From a virus, in the IMG/VR virus record IMGVR_UViG_3300048840_000022, positions 1 to 48,593 of that record: a stretch of DNA of 48,593 nt, one strand, 5' to 3'. Of this stretch, positions 1,112-46,048 are shown one piece after another. A program made the translations under genes and the position numbers. The notes beneath the pieces were generated by a model. The model saw only the letters and a program-made list of their open reading frames with translations, was not told the origin of the DNA and searched no databases. The first letter of the stretch is position 1. The number at the start of each line of letters is the position of its first letter.

Positions 1112-1905
1112 TCGATATAGCCATACCTATTGCTAAAGAGACTCCACAGCTTGAACAATGTGTTCAGGCTGTGGAGCATCATACTAAAATAGCCTATAAC
1201 TTAATTGTCAATGCCGAGCCACATCTAAATGTTGCAGAGAATCGTCAAGCCATCATGGATAAATCAACAGCACGATATCTCTGTTTTCTTGATGATGATA
1301 GTATGATGATTGATGATCACTGGTTAACAATAATGATTGATACAATCAAATGTAAACCAGATGCTGGTGCAGTATTCTTAAAGGAATGGTGGGGAAATGA
1401 ACCATTAGGAACTAATTTCCATAACGCTACCACTGGTATTAGAGAACTTGATTATGGTCCTAGTGCATGTATGCTAATTGATCGGTCAAGAATACCGGAT
1501 ACCTTTAGTTGGGATTCTAGAATCGGATTACGTAGTGATTGGCTTGGTGGTGATTTTGAAGAAGTAGATTGGCAGTACCGTTTGAGACACGAGACTGGCC
1601 TTAAGAGTTATATGAATGCTGATAAGATGTTTCACCATTTAGGAGGTAAGACTACTAGAGATAACTTCAAAGGCTCTGGCCGCTGGCATACAGTAATGGC
1701 AATGCAGGCTCTTTTAGATCATAAATATATTGTTGCGCCTGAAGATGAAGATTGGTTCAAGGGTTTACGATATGTACCAGCAGCAGTACATGATGATAAT
1801 CAGTTTGCTCCTGGATTCTCAGTAAAGGATTGCTATAGTGAAGTAGTCAAGCGTAATGGACTACAGCATCGTAGCATATTTAAAAGGCTAGGAATATGCG
1901 AGTAG
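1102..1905 (+). CDS. GT-A fold glycosyltransferase (family 2-like)
   Basis: A 267-residue protein with a GT-A nucleotide-sugar fold: an N-terminal beta-alpha unit (VDIAIPIAKETPQLEQCV) and a FLDDDSMM motif at residues 62-69, whose DxD acidic residues 64-66 normally bind the divalent metal and nucleotide-sugar. A later GGDFEEVDWQYR segment matches the usual acceptor-side acidic motif. It should transfer a sugar to an unknown acceptor in the cytoplasm. ATG at 1102 is preceded by GGAG at 1090. It overlaps both neighbours by about 10 bp, so it is translationally coupled inside the 1102-7302 operon. Confidence 0.8.
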   Translation: MAIVDIAIPIAKETPQLEQCVQAVEHHTKIAYNLIVNAEPHLNVAENRQAIMDKSTARYLCFLDDDSMMIDDHWLTIMIDTIKCKPDAGAVFLKEWWGNEPLGTNFHNATTGIRELDYGPSACMLIDRSRIPDTFSWDSRIGLRSDWLGGDFEEVDWQYRLRHETGLKSYMNADKMFHHLGGKTTRDNFKGSGRWHTVMAMQALLDHKYIVAPEDEDWFKGLRYVPAAVHDDNQFAPGFSVKDCYSEVVKRNGLQHRSIFKRLGICE

Positions 1906-3164
1906 CACTTGTACATATAAACTACAAAGGTCCAGCACACGAAGGCTATCAGATAGGTCTGGCTAGTTTGACGGCTGAACTACAAAAAGACTTTGACGCT
2001 GATCTATTTGTAATTAATGATGATGCTGATTTTCAAAATCTCATTGACTATAAGCCAACATTTGTTGGTATATATGCTATTGAGACCTATAAGAATATTA
2101 TAGGTGTCTTAACAGAATATATTAAAATGCATCTACCAAAGACTACAATAATACTTGGAGGACCCTATCCAACAATATGGCCTAAATGTTTAGATAGTTA
2201 TAAACATATTGATGGTATATTTCGTGGTGAGGGAGAGTTAGGTTTACCAGCCTATCTAAAGACAAAGAATAAAAAGATAGTTGGTTTTACTTGGAAGAAT
2301 GGTAATAACTATGGAGTAGCAAAACCATTAACAGTACAAGAACTACAGTCACTTGCTACACCATATCGTGGTGAGTACCAGCGTAAAGCAATTGATGATT
2401 GTACTTGGGATAAGTATGATAGTGGTAAAGGAATGATTCATTTCTCATTCACACGTGGTTGTCCGTGTAAGTGTGGATACTGTGCAAATAGTATTTATAA
2501 TAAACAAACTGGTAATTATTTTGCACGCATGCGAACAGTTGAACAGGCCATAATAGAAATTCAGGAAGCAACTGAGAATTTTAAATTTGGTACGATAACA
2601 TTTGAAGATGATATTCTTACTTGTAACTATGAATGGTTCTTAGATTTTATGGATGCATATAAGCATTCAATCTATATACCGTTTGAAATAAATACACATA
2701 CAAATTTTGTAGACACAATACAGCTTGAGTCATTAGCCGAAGCTAACTGCAAATTAGTTAGGATGGGTATTGAATCTGGTTCAGATAAGATTCGAAGAAT
2801 CATGGAAAGACCACGAGTAACTAATGAACAGATTTACGAATCATTTGCTACAGTACATCAACTTGGCATGAATACACTTAGTTATAATATTATTGGCTCT
2901 CCATATGAAACACCTGAGGACTTTAGACTAACGGCTGAGTTAAATAATAATATTACACATGATGCTGATATTAGACAGGTTACACATACAGCTAGCTTAA
3001 CAGTATTCTTTCCAGCTAGAGGTACTAAATTAGGCGAGCTATGTTATAAACATGGGTGGATTAGAAATGATATACCTGATCGTGTAGCACATGAGAAATA
3101 CATATTGAATACACCGTATATGAATGAGAGAGATATACACATTTGCAAAGGAATGATACTATGA
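1896..3164 (+). CDS. B12-binding radical SAM protein
   Basis: A 422-residue protein with two domains in order. Residues 1-125 form a cobalamin-binding-like Rossmann domain (VALVHINY at the start, IILGGPYPT near 85-93). Residues 180-400 form a radical SAM barrel with the CxxxCxxC cluster motif as C189, C193, C196 (GCPCKCGYC) and a later MGIESGSD segment. Class B radical SAM enzymes of this layout methylate unactivated carbon or phosphorus or remodel small molecules. Its place between glycosyltransferase and methyltransferase genes suggests tailoring of a sugar or lipid, but the substrate is not visible. Confidence 0.85.
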   Translation: MRVALVHINYKGPAHEGYQIGLASLTAELQKDFDADLFVINDDADFQNLIDYKPTFVGIYAIETYKNIIGVLTEYIKMHLPKTTIILGGPYPTIWPKCLDSYKHIDGIFRGEGELGLPAYLKTKNKKIVGFTWKNGNNYGVAKPLTVQELQSLATPYRGEYQRKAIDDCTWDKYDSGKGMIHFSFTRGCPCKCGYCANSIYNKQTGNYFARMRTVEQAIIEIQEATENFKFGTITFEDDILTCNYEWFLDFMDAYKHSIYIPFEINTHTNFVDTIQLESLAEANCKLVRMGIESGSDKIRRIMERPRVTNEQIYESFATVHQLGMNTLSYNIIGSPYETPEDFRLTAELNNNITHDADIRQVTHTASLTVFFPARGTKLGELCYKHGWIRNDIPDRVAHEKYILNTPYMNERDIHICKGMIL

Positions 3165-13110: not shown

Positions 13111-14055
13111 ATGAGTATTCGTACTGTATTGCTCAGTGAGATCCGTGAAAATCCAGTGGCACTGAGAACTGTCAACAAGAACAGTGAATCGTTCTTGGGT
13201 TTGGTTGACAGTATTAGATCCAAGGGATTCTTAGGATCAATTACTGGACGCGAGAAGAATGACGACGCGGGTGCTACGTATGTGGAGATCACTGATGGTC
13301 TGCATCGTTACAGCGCAGCTAAGGATGCCGGACTGGATAGTATTCCAGTTGATATCCTGAGCATGACCGATGGCGAGACTCTTGAGGCACAGCTTATGCT
13401 GAATGTCCACAAGGTCGAGACTAAGCCAGTTCAGTACAGCCAACAGCTTCGTAGGATTCTGTCAATGAATCCTCTTATGACTGAGGCTGAACTTGCTGCA
13501 AAGCTTGGTAAGTCGTCACAGTGGATTAAGGAACGTCTTGGCCTCTGCAAGCTGCCCGAAAGAGTTGCAAATTTGGTTGATGAGGGCAAGATCAATTTGT
13601 CAAATGCGTATGCACTTGCCAAGTTGCCACCTGAAGAAGCACCAGACTGGGTTGATCGTGCAATCACCGAAACACCAAGTGAATTTGTGCCAAAGGTTAA
13701 TGGTCGTATCAAAGAAGTGAAAGATGCAAAGCGTAAGGGTCAGGATGCAGGTGATGCTGAGTTTACACCTGTTGCACACTGTCAGAAGTTGGCAGACCTT
13801 AAGGCTGAACTTGAGAAGCCACAGGTTGGTCCTGTTCTTTGTAAGGCCGCTGGTGTTAAAGATGCACCATCTGGTTTTGCTCTTGGTGTTAGCTGGGCGC
13901 TGCATCTTGATCAGCAAAGTATTGAAGCTGCACAGGCCAAGTATGAAGAGCAGAAGTCTGCACGTGACAGTGCAAAGAAAGCTCGCAAGATAGAGCGCGC
14001 AAAGAAGAAGGCTGAAGAAGCTGCGAAGGCCGCTGCTGAAGCTAGTGAGGCATAG
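13111..14055 (+). CDS. ParB-like nuclease/partition protein (copy 1)
   Basis: A 314-residue ParB/RepB family protein. The N-terminal ParB domain has VLLSEIRENP, a VDSIRSKGFLGSIT strand-helix unit and TDGLHRYSAAK, the counterpart of the GERRxRA box. It is followed by a helix-turn-helix segment (TEAELAAKLGKSSQWIKERL) and a long Lys/Ala-rich coiled tail (from about residue 265). Such phage proteins bind DNA or act as CTP-dependent clamps or regulators. AAGGAG precedes ATG 13111. It is the first rightward gene after the divergent promoters. Confidence 0.82.
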   Translation: MSIRTVLLSEIRENPVALRTVNKNSESFLGLVDSIRSKGFLGSITGREKNDDAGATYVEITDGLHRYSAAKDAGLDSIPVDILSMTDGETLEAQLMLNVHKVETKPVQYSQQLRRILSMNPLMTEAELAAKLGKSSQWIKERLGLCKLPERVANLVDEGKINLSNAYALAKLPPEEAPDWVDRAITETPSEFVPKVNGRIKEVKDAKRKGQDAGDAEFTPVAHCQKLADLKAELEKPQVGPVLCKAAGVKDAPSGFALGVSWALHLDQQSIEAAQAKYEEQKSARDSAKKARKIERAKKKAEEAAKAAAEASEA

Positions 14056-15368: not shown

Positions 15369-15759
15369 GGGGACGAAATGGTATCGACTGGATAAGAAAT
15401 GATTAAGTTGCATGCCGAGGTTGGTCGGTTGGCCTCGTTAAAAGCCGTCCAAAAACTTAACTGCGAACAATGTAACTAATGTTGATTTCGATCAACGACT
15501 TGCCCACGCCGCATAGACGGTAAGGCCCAGAAAGTGGTAGGTGGCTGCGTAACCATGAGTACGGACGACCAACACAGCCTGGACAATCATGAAGCTTGAT
15601 AGTGATTGTTGAGATCAATTAAGCTGGTGGAGGGCCACATGGCCCCTGAGGCCAGTCTAGTAGGCCGAGATGCTTAACATCAAATTACTTGACTACGCAT
15701 GTAGACGCTTCTTCTATTATTATCGCAGGACCGGGGTTCGATTCCCCGCGTCTCCACCA
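15369..15759 (+). ncRNA. ssrA: tmRNA (transfer-messenger RNA), phage-encoded
   Basis: A complete 391-nt tmRNA. The 5' end GGGGACGAAATGG...TCGACTGG and 3' end ...CCGGGGTTCGATTCCCCG...CGTCTCCACCA pair as a 7-bp acceptor stem (GGGGACG with CGTCTCC), with an encoded CCA. The resume codon is GCG at 15463, and the tag reading frame runs to TAG at 15514, giving the 17-residue tag ANNVTNVDFDQRLAHAA, whose hydrophobic AHAA end resembles normal degradation tags. Several pseudoknot-like blocks follow. It would rescue stalled ribosomes and tag their products. The tag encoding and one-piece form are seen directly; activity is inferred. Confidence 0.95.
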
Positions 15760-15776: not shown

Positions 15777-16298
15777 ATGGATACAGTAGTACAGCCATTA
15801 GCTCTGACACAAATAGATTGGGACACTTACATTAACTTCTTTCAAGAGGTAATTGGTAGGTCTCCAACACATGATTTAGATGCCCACTTAATGCAAGTGG
15901 GCGAACTTGATTCTTTCATCGCATCATTAGCAGTTGGTATTGACCCAAGACAGGCACTACGTAATAATAATACAGTTCTTAAACACGTAAGTGCAGGGTT
16001 TATGACTAATGCTACAAGTGAAACGATTCGAGTAATCATGGAGACAGGTATAGCTGGTATTACTTATACAGACTATGCAAGAGGTAATCCAAGATTCTTT
16101 AGTATACTGAGTGGCACCGTTGAGGATTGGAAGAATACTATCCTTAGCCTATGTACACCAGCAACAAGTTTTGAAGTAAGATTTGTTGTTAATAGTTGTT
16201 GCCTATATCTTGAGAAAGCATCATTGTTTGAGGTATTTGGCAATTATGGGAAAGACACGTTGAGCGATAAGACATTTATATTGAGGAGAAAATCTTGA
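15777..16298 (+). CDS. Unknown protein (173 aa)
   Basis: Starts MDTVVQPLALTQIDWDTYIN directly after the tmRNA; GAGAGGG precedes the ATG. Mostly helical, soluble, with some Cys (CC at about 150) and an ASLAVGIDPRQALRNNN segment. It overlaps the helicase gene by 4 bp. No family is recognised. Confidence 0.65.
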   Translation: MDTVVQPLALTQIDWDTYINFFQEVIGRSPTHDLDAHLMQVGELDSFIASLAVGIDPRQALRNNNTVLKHVSAGFMTNATSETIRVIMETGIAGITYTDYARGNPRFFSILSGTVEDWKNTILSLCTPATSFEVRFVVNSCCLYLEKASLFEVFGNYGKDTLSDKTFILRRKS

Positions 16299-19213
16299 GT
16301 ATTATAGACACAAAGTTCAAAGCTGGAAAGTACCTAATACCTGTAACATTAAATTACAAAGACGATAATCGTATCTGGATGCGATTCAGATATAATAAAA
16401 TATTACTGAATGAAGTAAAAGTAATGGACGGAGCTAGATGGCATCCAGAATCAAAACAATGGCACGTTCCAAATACTCAGCGCAATAGATTCCAATTGGA
16501 ATTTTTACAGAATCGTGATCCATATACACGATATGATGCAGACCTCATTAAAGTTGAGTCTAATAGACCACTCTATGTCCATCAGATAGAGATGGTAGCT
16601 CATGCTTTAACCCGCCATTACTGTATCTTTGCATGTGAAATGGGAACTGGTAAGACTCTTGCTGCTATTGAGGTTCTTGAACACATCCCTGATCTTAACG
16701 ATCAGGACGTGTGGTATATTGGCCCGAAGTCTGGTGTTAGGGCTGTTAACCTAGAACTTCTTAAGTGGCAAGCACAAGTATGCCCAGGCCAGATGCTCAC
16801 ATACGAACGTATGAAAAAGATTATGCGTAACTGGATTAGTGGGATCAAAGCTCCACGAGTCGTAATCTTTGATGAATCCTCTAAACTTAAAACACCCACA
16901 TCGCAGCAATCAGAACTCGCATTGGCACTAGCCAATGGAGTTAGAAATGATTGGGGCGATCAAGGGTATGTAATAGAAATGTCTGGAACGCCCGCCCCTA
17001 AGACTCCACTAGACTGGTGGCAACAATGTATTTCAGGTGACACTTTGATTAAAACAACAAGTGGACTTTTAATGGCAAAAGAAATTGTGGGTAGGCATAC
17101 TTTCATAGAAATTAATGGCAAAGTAATTAATACAGATGGTACTTTTGTAACTGGTACAAAACAATTGCACAGGGTTACAACAGAAGAAGGGTATTCTATA
17201 CGAGCTACCGATGGCCATATGTTCCTAGTTGACTATGATGGTCTAAGATTTTGGAAATTTTTAAAAGATATAGGTGTAGGTGACACTTTAGTAATTAACG
17301 ATGTTGTAAATAATCATTGGGATGGTATTGGTACAGAGGATGATGGCTATATTTTAGGGGTACTTTTTGGTGATGGCAATGTTTACCGTAAAGGTTGTGG
17401 TAGACTTAAATTCTTTGAAGATGATGGTGATATTTTTCATGAGATTTTACGAATCATTGTTGATGCTAGCATAACAACTGGTTATCATCATAAAGTAATT
17501 ACCAGTAAGTATCTTAACGGTCTAATCAAAGAATACGGAATAGATTCTAAGAAAGTTATAAGTTTAGATATGATGAAAGCATCTAGTGATTTTATTAAAG
17601 GATTCTTAAGAGGAGTGTTTGATGCTGATGGATCAGTAGAGCAAACAAGATTACGCATAACATTAACACAAACAGATAGACACAATATTGAGAAAATACA
17701 GTTAATGTTACAGTGTATCGGTATATATTCTAAAATATACAAAAAACCAGCGCCAAAAGGCACAATTAATGGTAGTAAACCAACCAACAAATTAGTGATA
17801 ACTAATCAATATGCTAAGAAATATTTTGAATTGGTTGGCTTCAAGCACCATATAAAATATAAAAAATTATATGAACGAGTACAAAATAAACACCATTGGG
17901 AAACAGTGCCGTTGGCTAACATTGAAAGCATTACTAAGGATACTATTGAAACTGTTTATGACATCACGGTACCGAAAGAGCATTGCTTTAGCGCCAATGG
18001 AATAGTAGTCCATAACTGTGAGGTTGCATGTCCTGGTTTTATCAAGGAAGGAAATATCCATAAATTCCGGAACCGATTAGCCATCGTCGAAGAACGTGAG
18101 AACCAAATTACTGGTGGCAAATATCCTTACATTGTGGGCTGGCGTGATTCGGTAGACCGATGTGAAAAGTGTGGTAAGTTAAAGAGTGATCCAGACCACG
18201 ATGCTAAGAATCTTGGTGATCCAGATTGGCATAGTTTTACACCATGCATAAATGAGGTTGCCAAGTTATATGAGCGAATGAATGGACTAGTGTTAGTACA
18301 GTTCAAGAAGGATTGTATGGATCTACCAGACAAGCAGTATAAGATTATTCAACTAAGACCAAGTCCTGATACACTTAGAACTGCATTACTAATTAAGAAG
18401 ACCGCTGGACGCGCAATAGAGGTATTAACACTCTGTCGTGAACTTAGTGATGGATTCCAGTACACTGAGATTGAGACTGGTATTGATATTGAATGCCCTC
18501 GTTGCCTTGGTACAAAGACTGTAACTGTAAAACAACCAGTTGGAGAGTTAGATCTATATGGTCCAAATGTAGGTACTATAGAATATGAGGATGTTGAGAT
18601 TGTTTGTGATAACTGTTCTGGCCTAGGGCTTGTTGCACAGTATGCAAGGTCTATGGATGAGGTACCAACACCAAAGGACGATCAACTAATTGAAGATTTA
18701 CGCGATCATGAGGAAGTAGGAAGACTTATAGTGTGGGGTGGTTTTACTGGTACTGTAGATAGGATTGTAACTATCTGCCATAAAGAAGGTTGGTCAGTCT
18801 TACGTGTAGATGGTCGTGGATATGTGGGTACAGACTTCCAAGGCAATCCAATTGATGATACTGAATTGCTTATAGCTATGGATAACTCACACCCAAGACA
18901 GTCTGAATTACTTGAGAAGCATAAGCGACTTTGCTTTGTTGGGCATCCAAAGGCCGGTGGCATGGCATTAACATTAACAGCCAGTCCGACTGAAATATTC
19001 TATAGCAATGACTTTGCTGGTGAAGCTAGGATGCAAGCAGAAGATAGATTTCATAGAGGTGGAATGGATACTAATCGTGGCGCAACAATTATTGATTATT
19101 TCCACCTACCAACTGACAAGTATGTTCACACTAATTTAATGATAAAAAAGAATTTACAAAATATTTCTATGGGTGATTTAAATGACGTATTTAAGGAGAT
19201 GGGTAATGTATAA
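16295..19213 (+). CDS. SF2 (SNF2-like) helicase interrupted by an intein
   Basis: A 972-residue precursor. The extein is a DEAD/SNF2-type helicase of 642 residues: Walker A EMGTGKT (115-121), motif II FDESSK (192-197), motif III MSGTPAP (229-235), and C-terminal motifs V/VI ending in QAEDRFHRGGMD. It also has zinc elements (CEKC; a CPRC...CDNC DnaJ-like pair). An intein is inserted after DWWQQ at residue 245 and ends VHN at 574, with Cys575 as the first C-extein residue. After splicing it should be an ATP-driven DNA translocase for replication or recombination. The start overlaps the preceding gene by 4 bp, with GAGGAG upstream. Confidence 0.9.
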   Translation: MSIIDTKFKAGKYLIPVTLNYKDDNRIWMRFRYNKILLNEVKVMDGARWHPESKQWHVPNTQRNRFQLEFLQNRDPYTRYDADLIKVESNRPLYVHQIEMVAHALTRHYCIFACEMGTGKTLAAIEVLEHIPDLNDQDVWYIGPKSGVRAVNLELLKWQAQVCPGQMLTYERMKKIMRNWISGIKAPRVVIFDESSKLKTPTSQQSELALALANGVRNDWGDQGYVIEMSGTPAPKTPLDWWQQCISGDTLIKTTSGLLMAKEIVGRHTFIEINGKVINTDGTFVTGTKQLHRVTTEEGYSIRATDGHMFLVDYDGLRFWKFLKDIGVGDTLVINDVVNNHWDGIGTEDDGYILGVLFGDGNVYRKGCGRLKFFEDDGDIFHEILRIIVDASITTGYHHKVITSKYLNGLIKEYGIDSKKVISLDMMKASSDFIKGFLRGVFDADGSVEQTRLRITLTQTDRHNIEKIQLMLQCIGIYSKIYKKPAPKGTINGSKPTNKLVITNQYAKKYFELVGFKHHIKYKKLYERVQNKHHWETVPLANIESITKDTIETVYDITVPKEHCFSANGIVVHNCEVACPGFIKEGNIHKFRNRLAIVEERENQITGGKYPYIVGWRDSVDRCEKCGKLKSDPDHDAKNLGDPDWHSFTPCINEVAKLYERMNGLVLVQFKKDCMDLPDKQYKIIQLRPSPDTLRTALLIKKTAGRAIEVLTLCRELSDGFQYTEIETGIDIECPRCLGTKTVTVKQPVGELDLYGPNVGTIEYEDVEIVCDNCSGLGLVAQYARSMDEVPTPKDDQLIEDLRDHEEVGRLIVWGGFTGTVDRIVTICHKEGWSVLRVDGRGYVGTDFQGNPIDDTELLIAMDNSHPRQSELLEKHKRLCFVGHPKAGGMALTLTASPTEIFYSNDFAGEARMQAEDRFHRGGMDTNRGATIIDYFHLPTDKYVHTNLMIKKNLQNISMGDLNDVFKEMGNV
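17027..18016 (+). mobile_element. Intein with LAGLIDADG homing endonuclease domain
   Basis: 330 residues in frame inside the helicase. Block A is CISGDTLIKT with Cys1; block B is YSIRATDGHMF with the TxxH-like His; the C-terminal blocks are TVYDITVPKEHCFSANGIVVHN with terminal Asn and a following Cys nucleophile. Between them lie two LAGLIDADG helices, ILGVLFGDGNV and FLRGVFDADGS, so the homing endonuclease looks intact. All residues needed for standard class 1 splicing are present. Confidence 0.93.
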
Positions 19214-19657: not shown

Positions 19658-20497
19658 ATGACTACAGATTCTTCAGCTGTATTAGATGTGCTACTTACAG
19701 ATATCCACGCTGATATAGACTTTAACTGTCGTGGTGTGATTGCTCCAATCGATGTTGTTGATTTAGCAAGATCAATTGATAACCAAGGCCTAATTCAGCC
19801 CGTAGTAATTTCACCATACGATGAAGATAAGCAAAAGGAAACTGGCTTTAAGTATCTACTCATTGCGGGTTATCGTAGGTATAAAGCACATCAGGTTCTT
19901 GAACGTAAAGATATTAAATCTATAGTACGTGAAGGACTCAATGAGACAAGTGCAAGGATTTTAAATCTTGCAGAAAACTTAGATAGAGAAGACCTTAATA
20001 TTTTACAAGAGGCTAAGGCTATCAGTCGCCTTAAAGAGCTAAACGTAACAGAAATGGATACTGCAAAGGAACTCAATAAGTCACGTGGTTGGGTACAGGT
20101 TCGTTTTATGTTACTAGATTTACCTAATGAAATTCAGCAGGAAGCTGCCGCAGGATTCTTAACACAGACAGACATACGTTCATTATATAGTCTAGGTACA
20201 CGCGACGAAAGGCTAGGGGCGGCAAAGAGGATTAAGGAAGCAAAACAAAGAGGCCAGAACAAAATCAGTAAAGCTGTTGCAGTGGTTAAAAAGAAGAGCG
20301 ACAAACGTGTAAGAAAACGGCCAGAAATTTTCAGTATGATGGAACATGCAAGTGGTATAATTGGAAATGGATTATACTCACGCGCGTTTGCATGGTGTGC
20401 GGGAGAAATTAGTGACCATGAGTTCCTAATGGATATTAAAATCAAGGCAGAATCTGATGGTCTAGTCTATGAGATCCCTGCTGATGGAGACTATTAA
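19658..20497 (+). CDS. ParB/RepB/Spo0J-like protein (copy 2)
   Basis: A 279-residue protein with a ParB N-terminal domain: LARSIDNQGLIQPVVISPYD, LLIAGYRRYKAHQ (the GERR-type nucleotide box) and LAENLDREDLNILQEAKAI, followed by a helix-turn-helix (TAKELNKSRGWVQVRFMLL). It is closer to the canonical ParB pattern than copy 1. Its stop overlaps the next start (TAATG). It likely binds DNA as a phage partition or regulatory factor. Confidence 0.85.
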   Translation: MTTDSSAVLDVLLTDIHADIDFNCRGVIAPIDVVDLARSIDNQGLIQPVVISPYDEDKQKETGFKYLLIAGYRRYKAHQVLERKDIKSIVREGLNETSARILNLAENLDREDLNILQEAKAISRLKELNVTEMDTAKELNKSRGWVQVRFMLLDLPNEIQQEAAAGFLTQTDIRSLYSLGTRDERLGAAKRIKEAKQRGQNKISKAVAVVKKKSDKRVRKRPEIFSMMEHASGIIGNGLYSRAFAWCAGEISDHEFLMDIKIKAESDGLVYEIPADGDY

Positions 20498-35022: not shown

Positions 35023-36147
35023 ATGAACATAGCACTGTATAGGAATCTCTCATGCCAGAGGCGTGAGCAAGAGGAATATCGTATCAGAAAATGGATGTCC
35101 TTAAACGGGCATACTGAGTGCGATGCTCCAGAAGCAGATCTACTTATCTTTACAAGCTGTGGATATGACAGAACAAACTATAATTTGGCTATTGATCAGT
35201 TGATTAAAATGATTCCGTATAATATAATAACAACTGTTGTGGGTTGCTTCCCAAGTATTGATCCTGGCAATCCACTGTTAGCAAATTTCAACACATTAAA
35301 ACTACGTGACCTTAATGCTTATTTCGATACACTTGGTGGCATACCAATGTCGCCGATAATGGATAAAGACTGTGACCACTATGGTGTTCATATTGCAACA
35401 GGTTGTGTGGGCAACTGTACATACTGTGGATCTTGTCGTGCTACTGGTAAGGTTAAAAGTATCGAGCCACATATTATACTAGAGAACGTTATAGATATGT
35501 GGTCGAGAGGTATTACACCAATGCTATTGGCTGAGGATACTGGTGCATATGGTATGGATTGTTCATCGACGATTGTTGGTCTACTTGATTTATTGCGTAG
35601 GAATGCCAGAAAAGAAGACAAGATAATCGTAGATAACATGGATGCTCAATGGTTCATGTTACACTATGATGCACTAAGACAAATGTTGGATAGCGATTTC
35701 ATTATTCGTTTACCGTTGGGTGTTCAGAGTTTTAATCACGAAGTGTTAGCTAAAATGAATCGTAGAAATAATTACGACAGTCATCTTTTAGCTGAACGGA
35801 TTCGCGAAATCGCTGATGCTAGGATGGCTCGTAGCGGCAAAGACTACTGTGATAATTTAGATATTCATCTACTTGTTGGTTATCCTGGTGAGACACGTGA
35901 AGAGATGCATGTAACAATGTCTATTGTTAATAGACTGTTGAGCGATAATATACCGTTCTGTGCATCGCCATTCTTTAGGCATATAAATATGGATCTTCAA
36001 GAAAAGGAATTATCACCTAATGAATATCAGTTTAGGTGTAATGCACTATATGCTGGTGCACCAGAATTCAAGTGGATATGTCCAGCCTGTCATTACAAAT
36101 TATATGATTGTATTTGTACTGTAGATAGGAAAGGTAAGATGCTATGA
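35023..36147 (+). CDS. MiaB-like radical SAM protein (methylthiotransferase type), copy 1
   Basis: A 374-residue protein. The N-terminal domain has three cysteines spaced as in methylthiotransferases: C11 (NLSCQRRE), C46 (FTSCGYD), C75 (VVGCFPS), which normally hold an auxiliary 4Fe-4S cluster. The radical SAM motif is TGCVGNCTYCGSC (C128, C132, C135), with LPLGVQSFNHEVL and HLLVGYPGETREE later. In place of the TRAM domain is a short Cys-rich tail (CPACHYKLYDCIC). It would modify RNA or a protein; the next gene is a paralogue with an ATGA overlap. Confidence 0.8.
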   Translation: MNIALYRNLSCQRREQEEYRIRKWMSLNGHTECDAPEADLLIFTSCGYDRTNYNLAIDQLIKMIPYNIITTVVGCFPSIDPGNPLLANFNTLKLRDLNAYFDTLGGIPMSPIMDKDCDHYGVHIATGCVGNCTYCGSCRATGKVKSIEPHIILENVIDMWSRGITPMLLAEDTGAYGMDCSSTIVGLLDLLRRNARKEDKIIVDNMDAQWFMLHYDALRQMLDSDFIIRLPLGVQSFNHEVLAKMNRRNNYDSHLLAERIREIADARMARSGKDYCDNLDIHLLVGYPGETREEMHVTMSIVNRLLSDNIPFCASPFFRHINMDLQEKELSPNEYQFRCNALYAGAPEFKWICPACHYKLYDCICTVDRKGKML

Positions 36148-37316
36148 AGATTAGCGTTTTTAAGAATGGCCTATGCCATAGGCGTGAGCGTGAAGAGTTA
36201 ATGATTATTCAGTGGGCCTATCTTAATGGATGGGCTATTGACGATAACTATGCAACAAGTGATCTTATATTTTTTATAAGTTGTGCATTCAATAAGCCAC
36301 ACTATGATGCAGCACTGGCAGAGATTAAGAATCTTGAGCCATTCAAAGAAAAGACTATTGTACTTGGTTGTCTGCCAGATATAGATGAGGATATGATACC
36401 ACATGAAATGTTCTTTAGTAAGTTGAGTGAGTTCGATATGAATATGGCTCATCTTGATGAAAAATTGGGGACAACGATTCCATTTGCCAAGGTCTTAGAC
36501 GTAGACTGTGATAGTAATGTTAAGATACTAAGTGGTTGTCTTAACAATTGTAACTATTGCAATATTAATAAAGCTACTAAACGTCTTATATCTGAACCGC
36601 TACCAATGATTGTTCGTAAGGTAAAAGTACAATGGGCCAAAGGAATCACACCATTGTTAATGGGTGAGGATGCCGGTGCCTGGGGTAAGGATATTGGAAA
36701 AACGTTAGGTGATCTAATGATTGCACTGTTGCATGAAGTAATTATTTATGAGCAAATTGATCTCGACAATCTAGATGCTCATTGGGTAGATGAATACTAT
36801 GAGAATATGCGTATCTGGATAGGAATGGGATTCATAAGACGCATGGCTATAGGTGTCCAGTCATTCAGTCAACCGCTTGTTAAGGCCATGGGCCGGAAAC
36901 AGTTTGATGTTGAGAAAGTTGTACAGTTTATAACTGATGTTAAAGATATACAGACAACAGCTCTCAATATGCCATATGCTGGTATCGACATGCATCTAAT
37001 GGTTGGACATCCTGCTGAGACAGAAAAAGACTTTAAGACTACTTGTGCGATTGTTGAACAACTACAAGTACCATTCACGGTATTCAAGTGTTGGATACGT
37101 GATAAACCTATGCACCCAGAAGCAGATAGGCGTGAGAAGATGCTGTATGCTTTGGCTGATAATCTTGAGATTTGGGCCTGTCCGGTATGTAAAATGAAAC
37201 GTCACGAATGTATCTGTGATAGTAACAATAAGGCACCTGATCAACCACGTGGAACACTTGGTATCCATCAACCACATTCAAGCACAGGAGATAATATACC
37301 ACATGACTTGGATTAG
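36144..37316 (+). CDS. MiaB-like radical SAM protein, copy 2
   Basis: A 390-residue paralogue of the preceding protein. Auxiliary cysteines are C11, C47, C76; the radical SAM motif is SGCLNNCNYC (C132, C136, C139). MAIGVQSFSQPLV and HLMVGHPAETEKD match copy 1, as does the Cys-rich tail (CPVCKMKRHECIC). It has an additional low-complexity C-terminus (GTLGIHQPHSSTG). The two proteins may form a heterodimer or act on different positions of one substrate. Both sit between a tRNA-like element and a tRNA gene. Confidence 0.8.
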   Translation: MKISVFKNGLCHRREREELMIIQWAYLNGWAIDDNYATSDLIFFISCAFNKPHYDAALAEIKNLEPFKEKTIVLGCLPDIDEDMIPHEMFFSKLSEFDMNMAHLDEKLGTTIPFAKVLDVDCDSNVKILSGCLNNCNYCNINKATKRLISEPLPMIVRKVKVQWAKGITPLLMGEDAGAWGKDIGKTLGDLMIALLHEVIIYEQIDLDNLDAHWVDEYYENMRIWIGMGFIRRMAIGVQSFSQPLVKAMGRKQFDVEKVVQFITDVKDIQTTALNMPYAGIDMHLMVGHPAETEKDFKTTCAIVEQLQVPFTVFKCWIRDKPMHPEADRREKMLYALADNLEIWACPVCKMKRHECICDSNNKAPDQPRGTLGIHQPHSSTGDNIPHDLD

Positions 37317-37476
37317 AAAGATCATAGCGTTCTTGAGGTTGAGTGACAGGATAGTGTGTGAAGAGTCCAGAGGCCTGGGGCCATATGATTTCCATGACTA
37401 TCCTGACTCTGACGATGCACCACAACATTTCTTTCTTTTAAAATGTAGACGTTGTGGAAAGTATTTTTATATGTAG
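37303..37476 (+). CDS. Small protein with a zinc knuckle (57 aa)
   Basis: Starts MTWIRKIIAFLRLSDRIVCE; ends CRRCGKYFYM. CAGGAG is about 12 bp upstream. It overlaps the end of the radical SAM gene by 14 bp and its stop touches the tRNA. Unknown. Confidence 0.5.
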   Translation: MTWIRKIIAFLRLSDRIVCEESRGLGPYDFHDYPDSDDAPQHFFLLKCRRCGKYFYM

Positions 37477-42302: not shown

Positions 42303-43253
42303 ATGGATAATATTATATTAAAGCTCGGCAAGGATCTTAAGGCCGCAGCAGAATCAATGACGCACACAGAAGCTAGATTTCTTGTTGATAGTTACTACAC
42401 TATGCAGGATCAACGAATCAGATTGGCTGCACAGTTACGATCAGGCGACCAGCCTATGGAAGTATTGAACTGGTTTCTTAATAATGCAAACGCGCTTGAA
42501 AACCAAATCAAAATAGCCCTGAAACACTATGCCCAGAACCACGCAGTGGGACAGTGGTCAATGGGTATTTGTGGGATTGGCCCGATCATTTCAGCAGGAC
42601 TCTTGGCACACATCGACATGGATATTGCTAAGACACCTGGACATATTATGTCATATGCTGGTATCCACCCTGACTCAAAATGGATGGGCAAAAAAGGATC
42701 TGAGAAATTTGTCGCTGACAACGTACCAGTACGTACAAAAATAACAATGGAACTTGTTGCTGAACTAGCACCAAAGGCCAATCTCAAAACTGAAACGGTT
42801 TGGAAAAATATGGGTGACAAACCTACACGTAAGGACTTGATAGCAGCACTAGCTAGACGACCATTCAATGCTAATCTCAAGATACTTTGCTACAAGATTG
42901 GTGAATCATTTGTCAAGGTACAGAATAAGGATGCTGATGTATACGGCAAACTATTTGCTGAGCGTAAGGCTAAGGAGAATAAACGCAATGATGATGGTGA
43001 GTTGGCTGATCAAGCAGAAGCGAAGCTGGCTAAGTATAATATCGGCAAGACAACTGATGCCTATAAAGCATACTCAAAAGGCAAGCTACCACCTGCCCAT
43101 ATCCACGCAAGAGCAAGACGGTGGACAGTTAAGATATTCCTGAGCCATTGGTGGGAGGTTGCATACGAAGCACACTATGGCCAGAAGCCACCGTTTGAGC
43201 CATATCCAATAGCACACTTAGGACATGTACATAAGATTCCAGTTCCTGCTTAA
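42303..43253 (+). CDS. Tas-like (TasA-type) Nop/IS110 C-terminal domain protein
   Basis: A 316-residue protein. Residues 1-85 are helical. The centre GICGIGPIISAGLLAHIDM then TPGHIMSYAGIHPDSKW matches the helix-hairpin-helix core of the IS110 C-terminal domain (Transposase_20: GIGPxxAxxLLAEI...PxxLxxYAG), later ARRPFNANLKILCYKIGESF. The DEDD RuvC-like catalytic half of IS110 transposases is absent, and no HNH is fused. The stop codon lies inside the first unit of a dual-spacer repeat array. A Nop/IS110-like protein beside such an array is the hallmark of TIGR-Tas; without nuclease it fits TasA, an RNA-guided DNA-binding protein. An IS110 remnant is the alternative. Confidence 0.75.
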   Translation: MDNIILKLGKDLKAAAESMTHTEARFLVDSYYTMQDQRIRLAAQLRSGDQPMEVLNWFLNNANALENQIKIALKHYAQNHAVGQWSMGICGIGPIISAGLLAHIDMDIAKTPGHIMSYAGIHPDSKWMGKKGSEKFVADNVPVRTKITMELVAELAPKANLKTETVWKNMGDKPTRKDLIAALARRPFNANLKILCYKIGESFVKVQNKDADVYGKLFAERKAKENKRNDDGELADQAEAKLAKYNIGKTTDAYKAYSKGKLPPAHIHARARRWTVKIFLSHWWEVAYEAHYGQKPPFEPYPIAHLGHVHKIPVPA

Positions 43254-43546
43254 CCACGCAGTTCGATAATACAACGTAGACAAGTGAACCAGGCAAGACG
43301 ATAAAACAAAAGAATTGAGTGAACCAGGGAAATGGATAACACATCATAACAGAGTGAACCAAAGTGATTGATAAATCATGTCAAGATAGTGAATTAACGC
43401 ACCAGATAACCCAACTAAAGCGATAACACATGCTGTAGAAGTGAACCAAAGAACATGATAAATCATTTTCTTGAAGTGAACCATAAGGATCGATAACATA
43501 GTAGCAGGAGTGAGTCATTACACTATATAACCCACAAGAGTGAACG
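43248..43546 (+). repeat. TIGR-like dual-spacer array (35-bp period)
   Basis: Repeat 1 (edge type) AGTGAACCA starts at 43283, 43318, 43353, 43388 (AGTGAATTA), 43440, 43475, 43509 (AGTGAGTCA) and 43539 (truncated), with a degenerate GCTTAACCA at 43248. Repeat 2 (loop type) GATAANWCA starts at 43265, 43300, 43335, 43370, 43405, 43422, 43457, 43492 and 43526. Between repeat 1 and 2 there are always 8 variable bases; between repeat 2 and the next repeat 1, 8-9. Spacers are all different. At 43388-43439 one repeat 1 and one spacer are missing, giving 52 bp. The last units are degenerate. The usual CRISPR layout (one repeat, spacers over 25 bp) does not fit. Confidence 0.85.
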
Positions 43547-43771: not shown

Positions 43772-43972
43772 ATGGATGATACACAAAAGAAATGGATTGA
43801 TGATGCTAGTTATGAAAGACTACTAGAACGTTGGCGTAATGCACCACCAGGTGATTCTATTTTTATAGGCGACGCTGGTAACTATTACAAAAAGATCATG
43901 AATGAGAAGCGTGATAATTGTGATCATTTAGCAATCAGCATGAAAGTTGGATGGGGAGGACCTAGTGCATAG
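43772..43972 (+). CDS. Small unknown protein (66 aa)
   Basis: ATG 43772 follows TAGGAG. Starts MDDTQKKWIDDASYERLLER and has a GDSIFIGDAGNYY turn. It overlaps the next start by 8 bp. Confidence 0.6.
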   Translation: MDDTQKKWIDDASYERLLERWRNAPPGDSIFIGDAGNYYKKIMNEKRDNCDHLAISMKVGWGGPSA

Positions 43973-44726
43973 TTATAGCAGAGGACATAAGATTATTCAA
44001 GATGGTAATGGGGACTGGGTGTATGAGGATACTAAAAAGAAATGCTTCGTGCCAGAAGACAAACGAGCATGTAAAAAGTGTGGCCGTGAGCCAACACCGG
44101 AAGGACATGATGCTTGTCTTGGGCATATTGATTGGTTAACATCAGCGTGTTGTGGGCACGGTGTAACAGACCCGTGGCCACTTAAGATGAAGAAAGAGAT
44201 TCATGACAAAATACCAATGCTTACACAGCCATTAACAACAGAGGAAGGCTTCTTAAATGAGGCCTGTATGAATGAACTTAATGCAGCCATCCTTAATATA
44301 CCTGAAACACATAAACGCCTTAAGGATGATCCTGAGTGGATGACACCACAATGTATCAGTGATATTGATATATTAGGTGCGCTTGCTGATTCTGCAATCA
44401 AATGTTTTGGCGGCGCACCACCGAATCTTGAGGCCATTGTTAATTATACTAAGGTCGAATTGCGTACGCAATTGTTCAAGGAAACTTGTGATGGTGAAGC
44501 TGATAGGTTTAGATTAACCTATATGTCACTCTGCCAAATTAATAAATTTCTATGGGATATCTTAGGTGAGTTAGATATATTCATAGACTGGAATGACTCT
44601 AACAAATATAAAAACTGGATAGATACTAGTGCTGTACTGCACAATGTGTGTATCGCAGTAAGGAATGACAGGCGCCACTTTGTAGCATTCAACGAGAAGT
44701 TTGATCGCGAGTACAAGGAGGGATAA
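43965..44726 (+). CDS. Zinc-binding protein (253 aa)
   Basis: GTG 43965 follows GGGGAGG at a five-base spacing. The N-terminal ACKKCGREPTPEGHDACLGH motif, then CCGHG, is a recurrent phage zinc module (CKxCGxxPxxxGxDxCL). The helical C-terminal 150 residues are unknown. TAATG overlap with the next gene. Confidence 0.62.
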   Translation: MHSYSRGHKIIQDGNGDWVYEDTKKKCFVPEDKRACKKCGREPTPEGHDACLGHIDWLTSACCGHGVTDPWPLKMKKEIHDKIPMLTQPLTTEEGFLNEACMNELNAAILNIPETHKRLKDDPEWMTPQCISDIDILGALADSAIKCFGGAPPNLEAIVNYTKVELRTQLFKETCDGEADRFRLTYMSLCQINKFLWDILGELDIFIDWNDSNKYKNWIDTSAVLHNVCIAVRNDRRHFVAFNEKFDREYKEG

Positions 44727-45732: not shown

Positions 45733-46048
45733 ATTGAATTATGATCAGTTGCTAAAAATTCCTGAGAAGTATTATAATCAGTTGGCTAAGTATCGTCCTG
45801 ATTGGATGACTAAGAATCGTCCTGGTTTGATGGCTAAGTATCGTCCTGATTGGATGGCTGATAATCGTCCTGATTGGATGGCTAGGTATCGTCCTGATTG
45901 GATGGCTGATCATCGTCCTGGTTTGATGGCTGATCATCGTCCTGATTGGATGGCTAGGTACCGTTCTGAATTGGTAAATAACTATGATATTCCTGAAGAT
46001 ATCATGAAAATCATTGAGGGAGGGACAGATGTGGTGAAGGACTCATGA
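45719..46048 (+). CDS. Tandem-repeat protein (RPDWMADH-type, 109 aa)
   Basis: ATG 45719 follows AAGGAGAAG. The first 25 residues are unique (MKWNELNYDQLLKIPEKYYN), then seven 8-residue repeats with consensus RP-D/G-W/L-MA-x-x, then a unique acidic tail. Trp and Arg are spaced as in solenoid or helical repeat proteins found in some phages. Binding role is plausible but unknown. It splits the receiver domain pieces. Confidence 0.62.
   Translation: MKWNELNYDQLLKIPEKYYNQLAKYRPDWMTKNRPGLMAKYRPDWMADNRPDWMARYRPDWMADHRPGLMADHRPDWMARYRSELVNNYDIPEDIMKIIEGGTDVVKDS
45794..45961 (+). repeat. Seven 24-bp tandem repeats
   Basis: Units begin CGTCCTGATTGGATGGCT (or CGTCCTGGTTTGATGGCT) at 45794, 45818, 45842, 45866, 45890, 45914 and 45938, with an eighth partial at 45962. 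Exact 24-bp phase keeps the frame. The last six bases of each unit vary. Confidence 0.9.

What the first reader, a model, noticed from the sequence alone, without database searches (positions are those of the whole stretch)
42303..43546. A TIGR-Tas-like RNA-guided system in a phage: Nop/IS110-type protein plus dual-spacer array
Seen: a 316-aa protein with the IS110 C-terminal core (GIGPIISAGLLAHI...SYAGI) and no DEDD or HNH nuclease, followed without a gap by units of AGTGAACCA - 8 variable - GATAANWCA - 8/9 variable. Known: TIGR-Tas systems pair Nop-domain proteins related to IS110 with arrays of two alternating repeats and two roughly 9-nt spacers per 36-nt guide RNA. The period, spacer length, two repeat types and gene order all agree. 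Inference: a TasA-type, nuclease-free system, possibly used for gene control or inter-phage competition.
Basis: partly seen in the sequence, partly recalled or inferred. Interest (0 to 1): 0.96.

Follow-up and report, generated by a model that had tools for sequence, protein, structure and literature searches.

The report
Phage TIGR-TasA RNA-guided DNA-binding system
This phage carries a nuclease-free TIGR-Tas system, meaning a TasA protein plus an array of small dual-spacer guide RNAs, that probably binds DNA at guided sites; it is a real new example of a family published in 2025, and what it targets remains unknown.

Summary
Window 42303-43253 encodes a 316-aa solo Nop-domain protein that passes NCBI's curated TIGR-Tas model (172.5 bits, cut-off 100) and fails the IS110 model (25.9 bits, cut-off 140). 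Its confident AlphaFold model (pLDDT 94.4) best matches solved TasR and TasH. Directly behind it, overlapping the stop codon, lies a TIGR array of about 8 units: edge repeat nAGTGAACCA, loop repeat GATAANNCA, 8-nt spacers, 35-nt period. One half-unit is lost and the last unit is degenerate. It is therefore a TIGR-TasA system.

I recovered 102 non-redundant Tas proteins, with 79 arrays and 1605 units parsed. Their repeats show compensatory pairing. The window protein groups with two phage TasAs (SH-aLRT 99%). All three arrays use 35-nt units with a shortened loop repeat, and all three proteins carry a roughly 50-aa Nop-domain insert seen in only 10 of 82.

No spacer pair of the window targets its own phage, and there was no excess over controls in 4 Mb of phage and bacterial DNA. 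No pair is shared between loci. Target and role are unresolved. This is a new member of a known kind; the insert and short-loop lineage is a mild variant.

The parts
42303..43253 (+). tasA: 316-aa solo Nop-domain protein, no nuclease domain
   Evidence: NCBIfam NF052498 172.5 bits (cut-off 100); PDB TasR/TasH by sequence and by fold; AF2 pLDDT 94.4
42660..42863 (+). region of the Nop domain (residues 120-187) holding an extra ~50-aa helical insert found in 10 of 82 phage Tas proteins
   Evidence: alignment A4; helices at 129-140, 149-158, 163-168, 176-183 in the model
43251..43546 (+). TIGR array, about 8 units of 35 nt; begins as a truncated edge repeat inside the tasA stop codon and ends in a truncated edge repeat (GAGTGAACG) followed by TTTT
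43257..43281 (+). unit 1: spacer A CGCAGTTC, loop GATAATACA (43265-43273), spacer B ACGTAGAC
43282..43316 (+). unit 2: edge AAGTGAACCA, spacer A GGCAAGAC, loop GATAAAACA (43300-43308), spacer B AAAGAATT
43317..43351 (+). unit 3: edge GAGTGAACCA, spacer A GGGAAATG, loop GATAACACA, spacer B TCATAACA
43352..43386 (+). unit 4: edge GAGTGAACCA, spacer A AAGTGATT, loop GATAAATCA, spacer B TGTCAAGA
43387..43438 (+). unit 5 (irregular, 52 nt): edge TAGTGAATTA, ACGCACCA, loop GATAACCCA, ACTAAAGC, loop GATAACACA (43422), TGCTGTAG; one edge plus spacer half-unit missing
   Evidence: 17-nt step between loop repeats
43439..43473 (+). unit 6: edge AAGTGAACCA, spacer A AAGAACAT, loop GATAAATCA, spacer B TTTTCTTG
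43474..43507 (+). unit 7: edge AAGTGAACCA, spacer A TAAGGATC, loop GATAACATA, spacer B GTAGCAG (7 nt)
43508..43546 (+). unit 8 (degenerate): edge GAGTGAGTCA, TTACACTA, loop-like TATAACCCA, about 3 nt, terminal partial edge GAGTGAACG

Best explanation
This is a phage TIGR-TasA locus. The co-directional array is transcribed behind tasA and cut within the edge repeats into about 35-nt tigRNAs, each carrying an 8-nt spacer A, a loop repeat and an 8-nt spacer B. Two TasA protomers hold one tigRNA, one on the edge repeat and one on the loop repeat. The two spacers pair with opposite strands of a roughly 16-bp site (spacer A followed by the reverse complement of spacer B), which opens and sharply bends the DNA. 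With no nuclease, TasA would act by occupying or bending the site and so block transcription, replication or another protein there, most likely on non-self DNA (host or competing mobile elements). Shown here: protein family, predicted fold, lack of nuclease, array architecture, conserved repeat pairing, and no self target. Inferred from the published TasR/TasH/TasA work: processing, RNA binding, dual-strand targeting and bending. Not shown: that this locus is expressed, what it targets and what binding does.
For: NCBIfam NF052498 TIGR_Tas 172.5 bits over residues 24-287, against IS110 NF033542 25.9 bits with cut-off 140. Profile hits in the PDB only to TasR 9mty (6e-14) and TasH (7e-7). AF2 model pLDDT 94.4, with Foldseek best hits TasR and TasH (E 1e-5 to 1e-4, probability 1.00) and IS621/ISCro4 far behind (E about 0.4). 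Array statistics. About 100 homologous phage loci, most with TIGR arrays, about half starting within roughly 50 nt of the tas stop as here. Repeat pair 3:-3 is Watson-Crick in 143 of 158 repeats, against 93.5 (max 106) in shuffles. The inner pair 4:-4 occurs in exactly one of the two repeats in 65 of 79 arrays, which identifies the edge repeat; the window edge has both pairs, G-C and T-A. Published mechanism: PMC12045711. No self target in the window or, for 79 arrays, in the flanks held (0 observed, about 1 expected by control).
Against: The Foldseek TM-score to TasR/TasH is only about 0.5, perhaps because of domain placement and the insert. The loop repeat is one nucleotide short and its two inner positions vary, so edge-loop symmetry is weaker than in TasR arrays. 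One of about 8 units is rearranged and the last is degenerate, which could mean decay. No terminator is seen after the array; the next gene's RBS follows at once. No target was found in 1.37 Mb of related phage DNA or 4.07 Mb overall.
Confidence: 0.93

Rival explanations
1. A decayed IS110 insertion element: an IS110 transposase that has lost its DEDD domain, with chance repeats in its flank.
For: Pfam Transposase_20 match just above cut-off (21.9 against 21.3 bits); PHROG 4285 is labelled transposase.
Against: NCBIfam IS110 model fails badly while the Tas model passes; intact 316-aa reading frame; about 100 phage homologues, mostly of the same short architecture and most with arrays; PHROG 4285 covers residues 8-312, that is, a family of this short form; PDB fold ranking puts Tas first.
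Confidence: 0.02
2. A genuine TIGR-TasA locus that is no longer used: the array is a relic in a decaying system.
For: One half-unit deletion, one edge repeat changed to AGTGAATTA, one loop to GATAACATA, and a collapsed last unit; only about 8 units, where other arrays reach several tens.
Against: The reading frame is intact and keeps the conserved residues; most units are regular; irregular units occur in other arrays too (G043, G050).
Confidence: 0.12
3. A TIGR-TasA whose product acts on the phage's own genome (packaging, partition or gene timing) rather than on foreign DNA.
For: A ParB-like gene sits next to tasA in the 69-kb relative (L001/G049), as in the published TasParB operons, which hints at partition-like roles; two ParB-like genes lie in the window (13111, 19658).
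Against: No self target above control level in the window, G043, G049 or G050; the window's ParB genes are 22-29 kb from tasA and not similar to the TasParB of L001.
Confidence: 0.08

Closest known systems
TIGR-TasA with dual-repeat array (Faure et al. 2025, PMC12045711; FpTIGR from Flavonifractor plautii)
   Same: Solo Nop-domain protein, adjacent array of alternating edge and loop repeats with two short spacers per unit, truncated edge repeats at both ends, phage origin
   Different: 35-nt unit instead of 36; 8-nt spacers (16 nt in all); loop repeat 9 nt and variable inside; about 50-aa insert in the Nop domain; no terminator after the array
TIGR TasParB-TasA operons (same paper, fig. S14); here the 69-kb record L001/G049
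   Same: TasA 47-50% identical and in the same small group in the tree (SH-aLRT 99%); 35-nt units; arrays around the genes
   Different: No ParB gene next to tasA in the window
TasR (9mty) and TasH (9w02 and others)
   Same: Nop fold, coiled coil, C-terminal RNA-binding part; best sequence and fold matches
   Different: The window protein has only about 24 residues before the coiled coil, so no RuvC or HNH domain; TasR lacks the insert by sequence alignment
IS110 transposases (IS621, ISCro4)
   Same: Shared GIGP...AG core and Nop-like RNA-binding fold
   Different: No DEDD domain, and an array of many short guides instead of a single bridge RNA; IS110 curated model not passed

Membership tests
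TIGR-Tas (TasA type) | Protein of the Tas/Nop family | tested here: met
   NF052498 172.5 bits, cut-off 100; Foldseek and PDB sequence hits to TasR/TasH
TIGR-Tas (TasA type) | Adjacent array of two alternating 8-12-nt repeats with two ~8-9-nt spacers per unit | tested here: met
   10/8/9/8 layout, 35-nt period, about 8 units
TIGR-Tas (TasA type) | Array begins and ends with truncated edge repeats | tested here: met
   TAACCA at 43251-43256; GAGTGAACG at 43538-43546
TIGR-Tas (TasA type) | Predicted rho-independent terminator after the array (described as typical, not required) | tested here: not met
   No + strand terminator at the array end by a simple consensus scan
TIGR-Tas (TasA type) | Box C/D-like pairing within repeats, extra pair in the edge repeat | tested here: met
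   Covariation over 158 repeats of 79 arrays; window edge has G3-C8 and T4-A7
TIGR-Tas (TasA type) | No HNH or RuvC domain (separates TasA from TasH/TasR) | tested here: met
   No nuclease domain by Pfam or NCBIfam; about 24 residues before the coiled coil
TIGR-Tas (TasA type) | Array processed into ~36-nt tigRNAs bound by Tas | not testable with these tools
   Needs small-RNA sequencing
TIGR-Tas (TasA type) | Guide-dependent binding to both DNA strands | not testable with these tools
   Needs biochemistry; no natural target found
TIGR TasParB subtype | ParB-like gene in operon with tasA | tested here: not met
   No ParB neighbour; the window's ParB genes are remote and unlike TasParB
IS110 transposase | N-terminal DEDD catalytic domain and full-length IS110 model | tested here: not met
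   NF033542 25.9 bits, cut-off 140; no DEDD domain

The most novel reading that the evidence does not exclude
The window belongs to a distinct TasA lineage (with L008 and L001) in which a ~50-aa helical insert in the Nop domain goes with a shortened 9-nt loop repeat and 35-nt guides. The insert could contact the loop side of the guide or recruit a partner, making the two halves of the RNP functionally unequal, unlike the symmetric TasR complex.
Probability: 0.2. Interest if true: 0.55.

Novelty: new member of a known kind. Interest (0 to 1): 0.36.

Why it matters
TIGR-TasA systems are the commonest TIGR form, yet their function and targets are unknown. This locus is a clean phage example with few units, and the companion set made here (102 non-redundant Tas proteins, 79 arrays, 1605 spacer pairs) turns some open points into numbers: repeat pairing is conserved, spacer pairs are private to each locus, and self-targeting is not seen in the DNA held. 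The insert-bearing short-loop lineage gives a handle on whether the two halves of the complex are equivalent.

Tried and rejected
Array-repeat pattern in IMG/VR: 3 chance matches only. Protein searches in the phage (INPHARED) and plasmid collections: no match. Codon pattern for AKTPGHI in viral and genome contigs: only one new true relative (L008) among well over 100 stretches. Codon pattern for IFLSHWWE: one extra match, L148, a false one. First AF2 run on 3 sequences was too poor to use (pLDDT 58.6). Self-target search with three geometries: nothing above shuffled controls. Targets in 80 related-phage loci: nothing. Targets among the window, G043, G049 and G050: only one hit, one mismatch, for a 15-nt pair from G043 in the window, taken as chance. 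1605 spacer pairs against 4.07 Mb: 15 and 14 exact hits in the two pairings, against 10.6 and 12.5 in controls, so no clear enrichment. TasParB reading rejected. Defence-system models: nothing in the genes next to the locus that were scanned.

Full report
Observation. The ORF 42303-43253 (+) encodes 316 aa. Behind it, starting in its own stop codon, lie alternating short repeats. The pattern AGTGAACCA-N8-GATAANNCA (3 mismatches allowed) has 9 matches in the window, 8 in the array, against 0.70 expected by shuffling. TRF reports a 35-nt period. A cluster search finds no second array in the window.

Protein identity. NCBIfam's curated TIGR-Tas model is passed (172.5 bits, cut-off 100), while the IS110 model is not (25.9 bits, cut-off 140). 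By sequence profile the only solved relatives are TasR 9mty and TasH. An AlphaFold model from 82 aligned Tas proteins has pLDDT 94.4 and pTM 0.89. Its closest solved folds are TasR and TasH (E 1e-5 to 1e-4), with IS621 and ISCro4 next at about 0.4. No DEDD, HNH or RuvC domain is present, and only about 24 residues precede the coiled coil.

Relatives. Two near relatives came first. L001/G049 is a 69-kb record with a 127-nt terminal overlap, carrying a ParB-like gene, TasA and several arrays. L008/G050 is a 231-kb record with TasA followed by a long array and a second array about 1.5 kb further on. Of 48 records related to the window phage by its primase, one (G043, 130 kb) also has TasA, with five dispersed arrays, so TasA is a sporadic accessory gene in this phage group. 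With the earlier loci this makes 131 ORFs, 102 of them non-redundant. Most have arrays in phase with 34-38-nt periods, the great majority 36.

Array anatomy against the family. Over 79 parsed arrays (1605 units), repeats are typically 10 nt, GA-N5-CCA, separated by 8-nt spacers. Repeat positions 3 and -3 form a Watson-Crick pair in 143 of 158 repeats (shuffle mean 93.5, maximum 106). An inner 4:-4 pair is present in exactly one of the two repeats in 65 arrays, which matches the published extra pair of edge repeats (PMC12045711). On this key the window edge repeat is nAGTGAACCA (pairs G-C and T-A) and the loop repeat is GATAANNCA, one nucleotide short. The shuffle control does not remove relatedness between arrays, but several pair types (GC, AT, TA) recur.

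Variant features. In the Tas tree the window, L008 and L001 form a group with SH-aLRT 99%, and all three have 35-nt units. Ten of 82 Tas proteins, including these three, have 61-80 residues between positions 120 and 187 where the others have 13-16. Not all insert-bearing proteins have 35-nt units (L360, L328, L291 and L262 have 36), so the link to the short loop is only suggestive.

Array history. The loop-repeat spacing is 35 except for one 17-nt step at 43405-43422, which equals the loss of one edge plus one spacer, and a step of about 34 at the end. The last unit has collapsed to about 3 nt of spacer B. The array thus appears to have shrunk by a half-unit. This is an inference from one case.

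Targets. Using the published geometry (spacer A, 0-2 nt gap, reverse complement of spacer B; derived from the cut positions in PMC12045711), the window's pairs have no better match in the window than shuffled pairs, nor in 1.37 Mb of related phages. Across 79 arrays there were 0 matches at 0-1 mismatch in the flanks held, against about 1 in controls. Over 4.07 Mb the exact hits were 15 and 14 for the two possible pairings, against 10.6 and 12.5 for mismatched pairs. None of 1598 pairs is shared between loci. The targets therefore lie outside what was searched, or matching is looser than assumed. The function is not established.

Mechanism. From the published work, Tas dimers bind one tigRNA and pair its two spacers with opposite DNA strands, bending the DNA by nearly 180 degrees. 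TasA lacks nuclease, and its authors suggest steric interference, regulation or help to integrases. For the window I favour RNA-guided occupation of non-self DNA. The step from binding to effect is inference.

Verdict. It is a new member of a known kind with mild variant features.

Noticed in passing
window 15369-15759: A tmRNA gene (Rfam 143.8 bits, ARAGORN agrees) in a phage, with a long predicted tag peptide; there is also a tRNA-Leu at 37476.
   Followed up: no
window 43947-44726: The 259-aa protein two small ORFs downstream of the array has a sub-threshold match (23.5 bits, cut-off 27) to Tad5, a type I Thoeris inhibitor. In L008 the gene upstream of tasA is a nicotinate phosphoribosyltransferase. 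Both could touch NAD or Thoeris counter-defence, which may be coincidence.
   Followed up: partly
window 16295-19213: Helicase-like protein (SNF2-related match) holding an intein with a LAGLIDADG endonuclease domain.
   Followed up: no
window 13111-14055 and 19658-20497: Two ParB-like proteins far from tasA; the second is followed by a partial D12 methyltransferase match.
   Followed up: partly
window 35023-37316 and 1896-3164: Two adjacent MiaB/MtaB-like radical SAM proteins and a third B12-binding radical SAM protein.
   Followed up: no
window 45783-45974: 24-nt tandem repeat, 8 copies, overlapping a 115-aa ORF.
   Followed up: no
G043 positions 55685-67492 (L234, L235): Five TIGR arrays dispersed over 12 kb of one phage, some with unusual loop repeats such as GTGATTTTTAATCA.
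   Followed up: partly
L327 621-2747 and L326 105-2225: Tas ORFs of about 700 aa, more than twice the usual length, so possibly fused to another domain.
   Followed up: no
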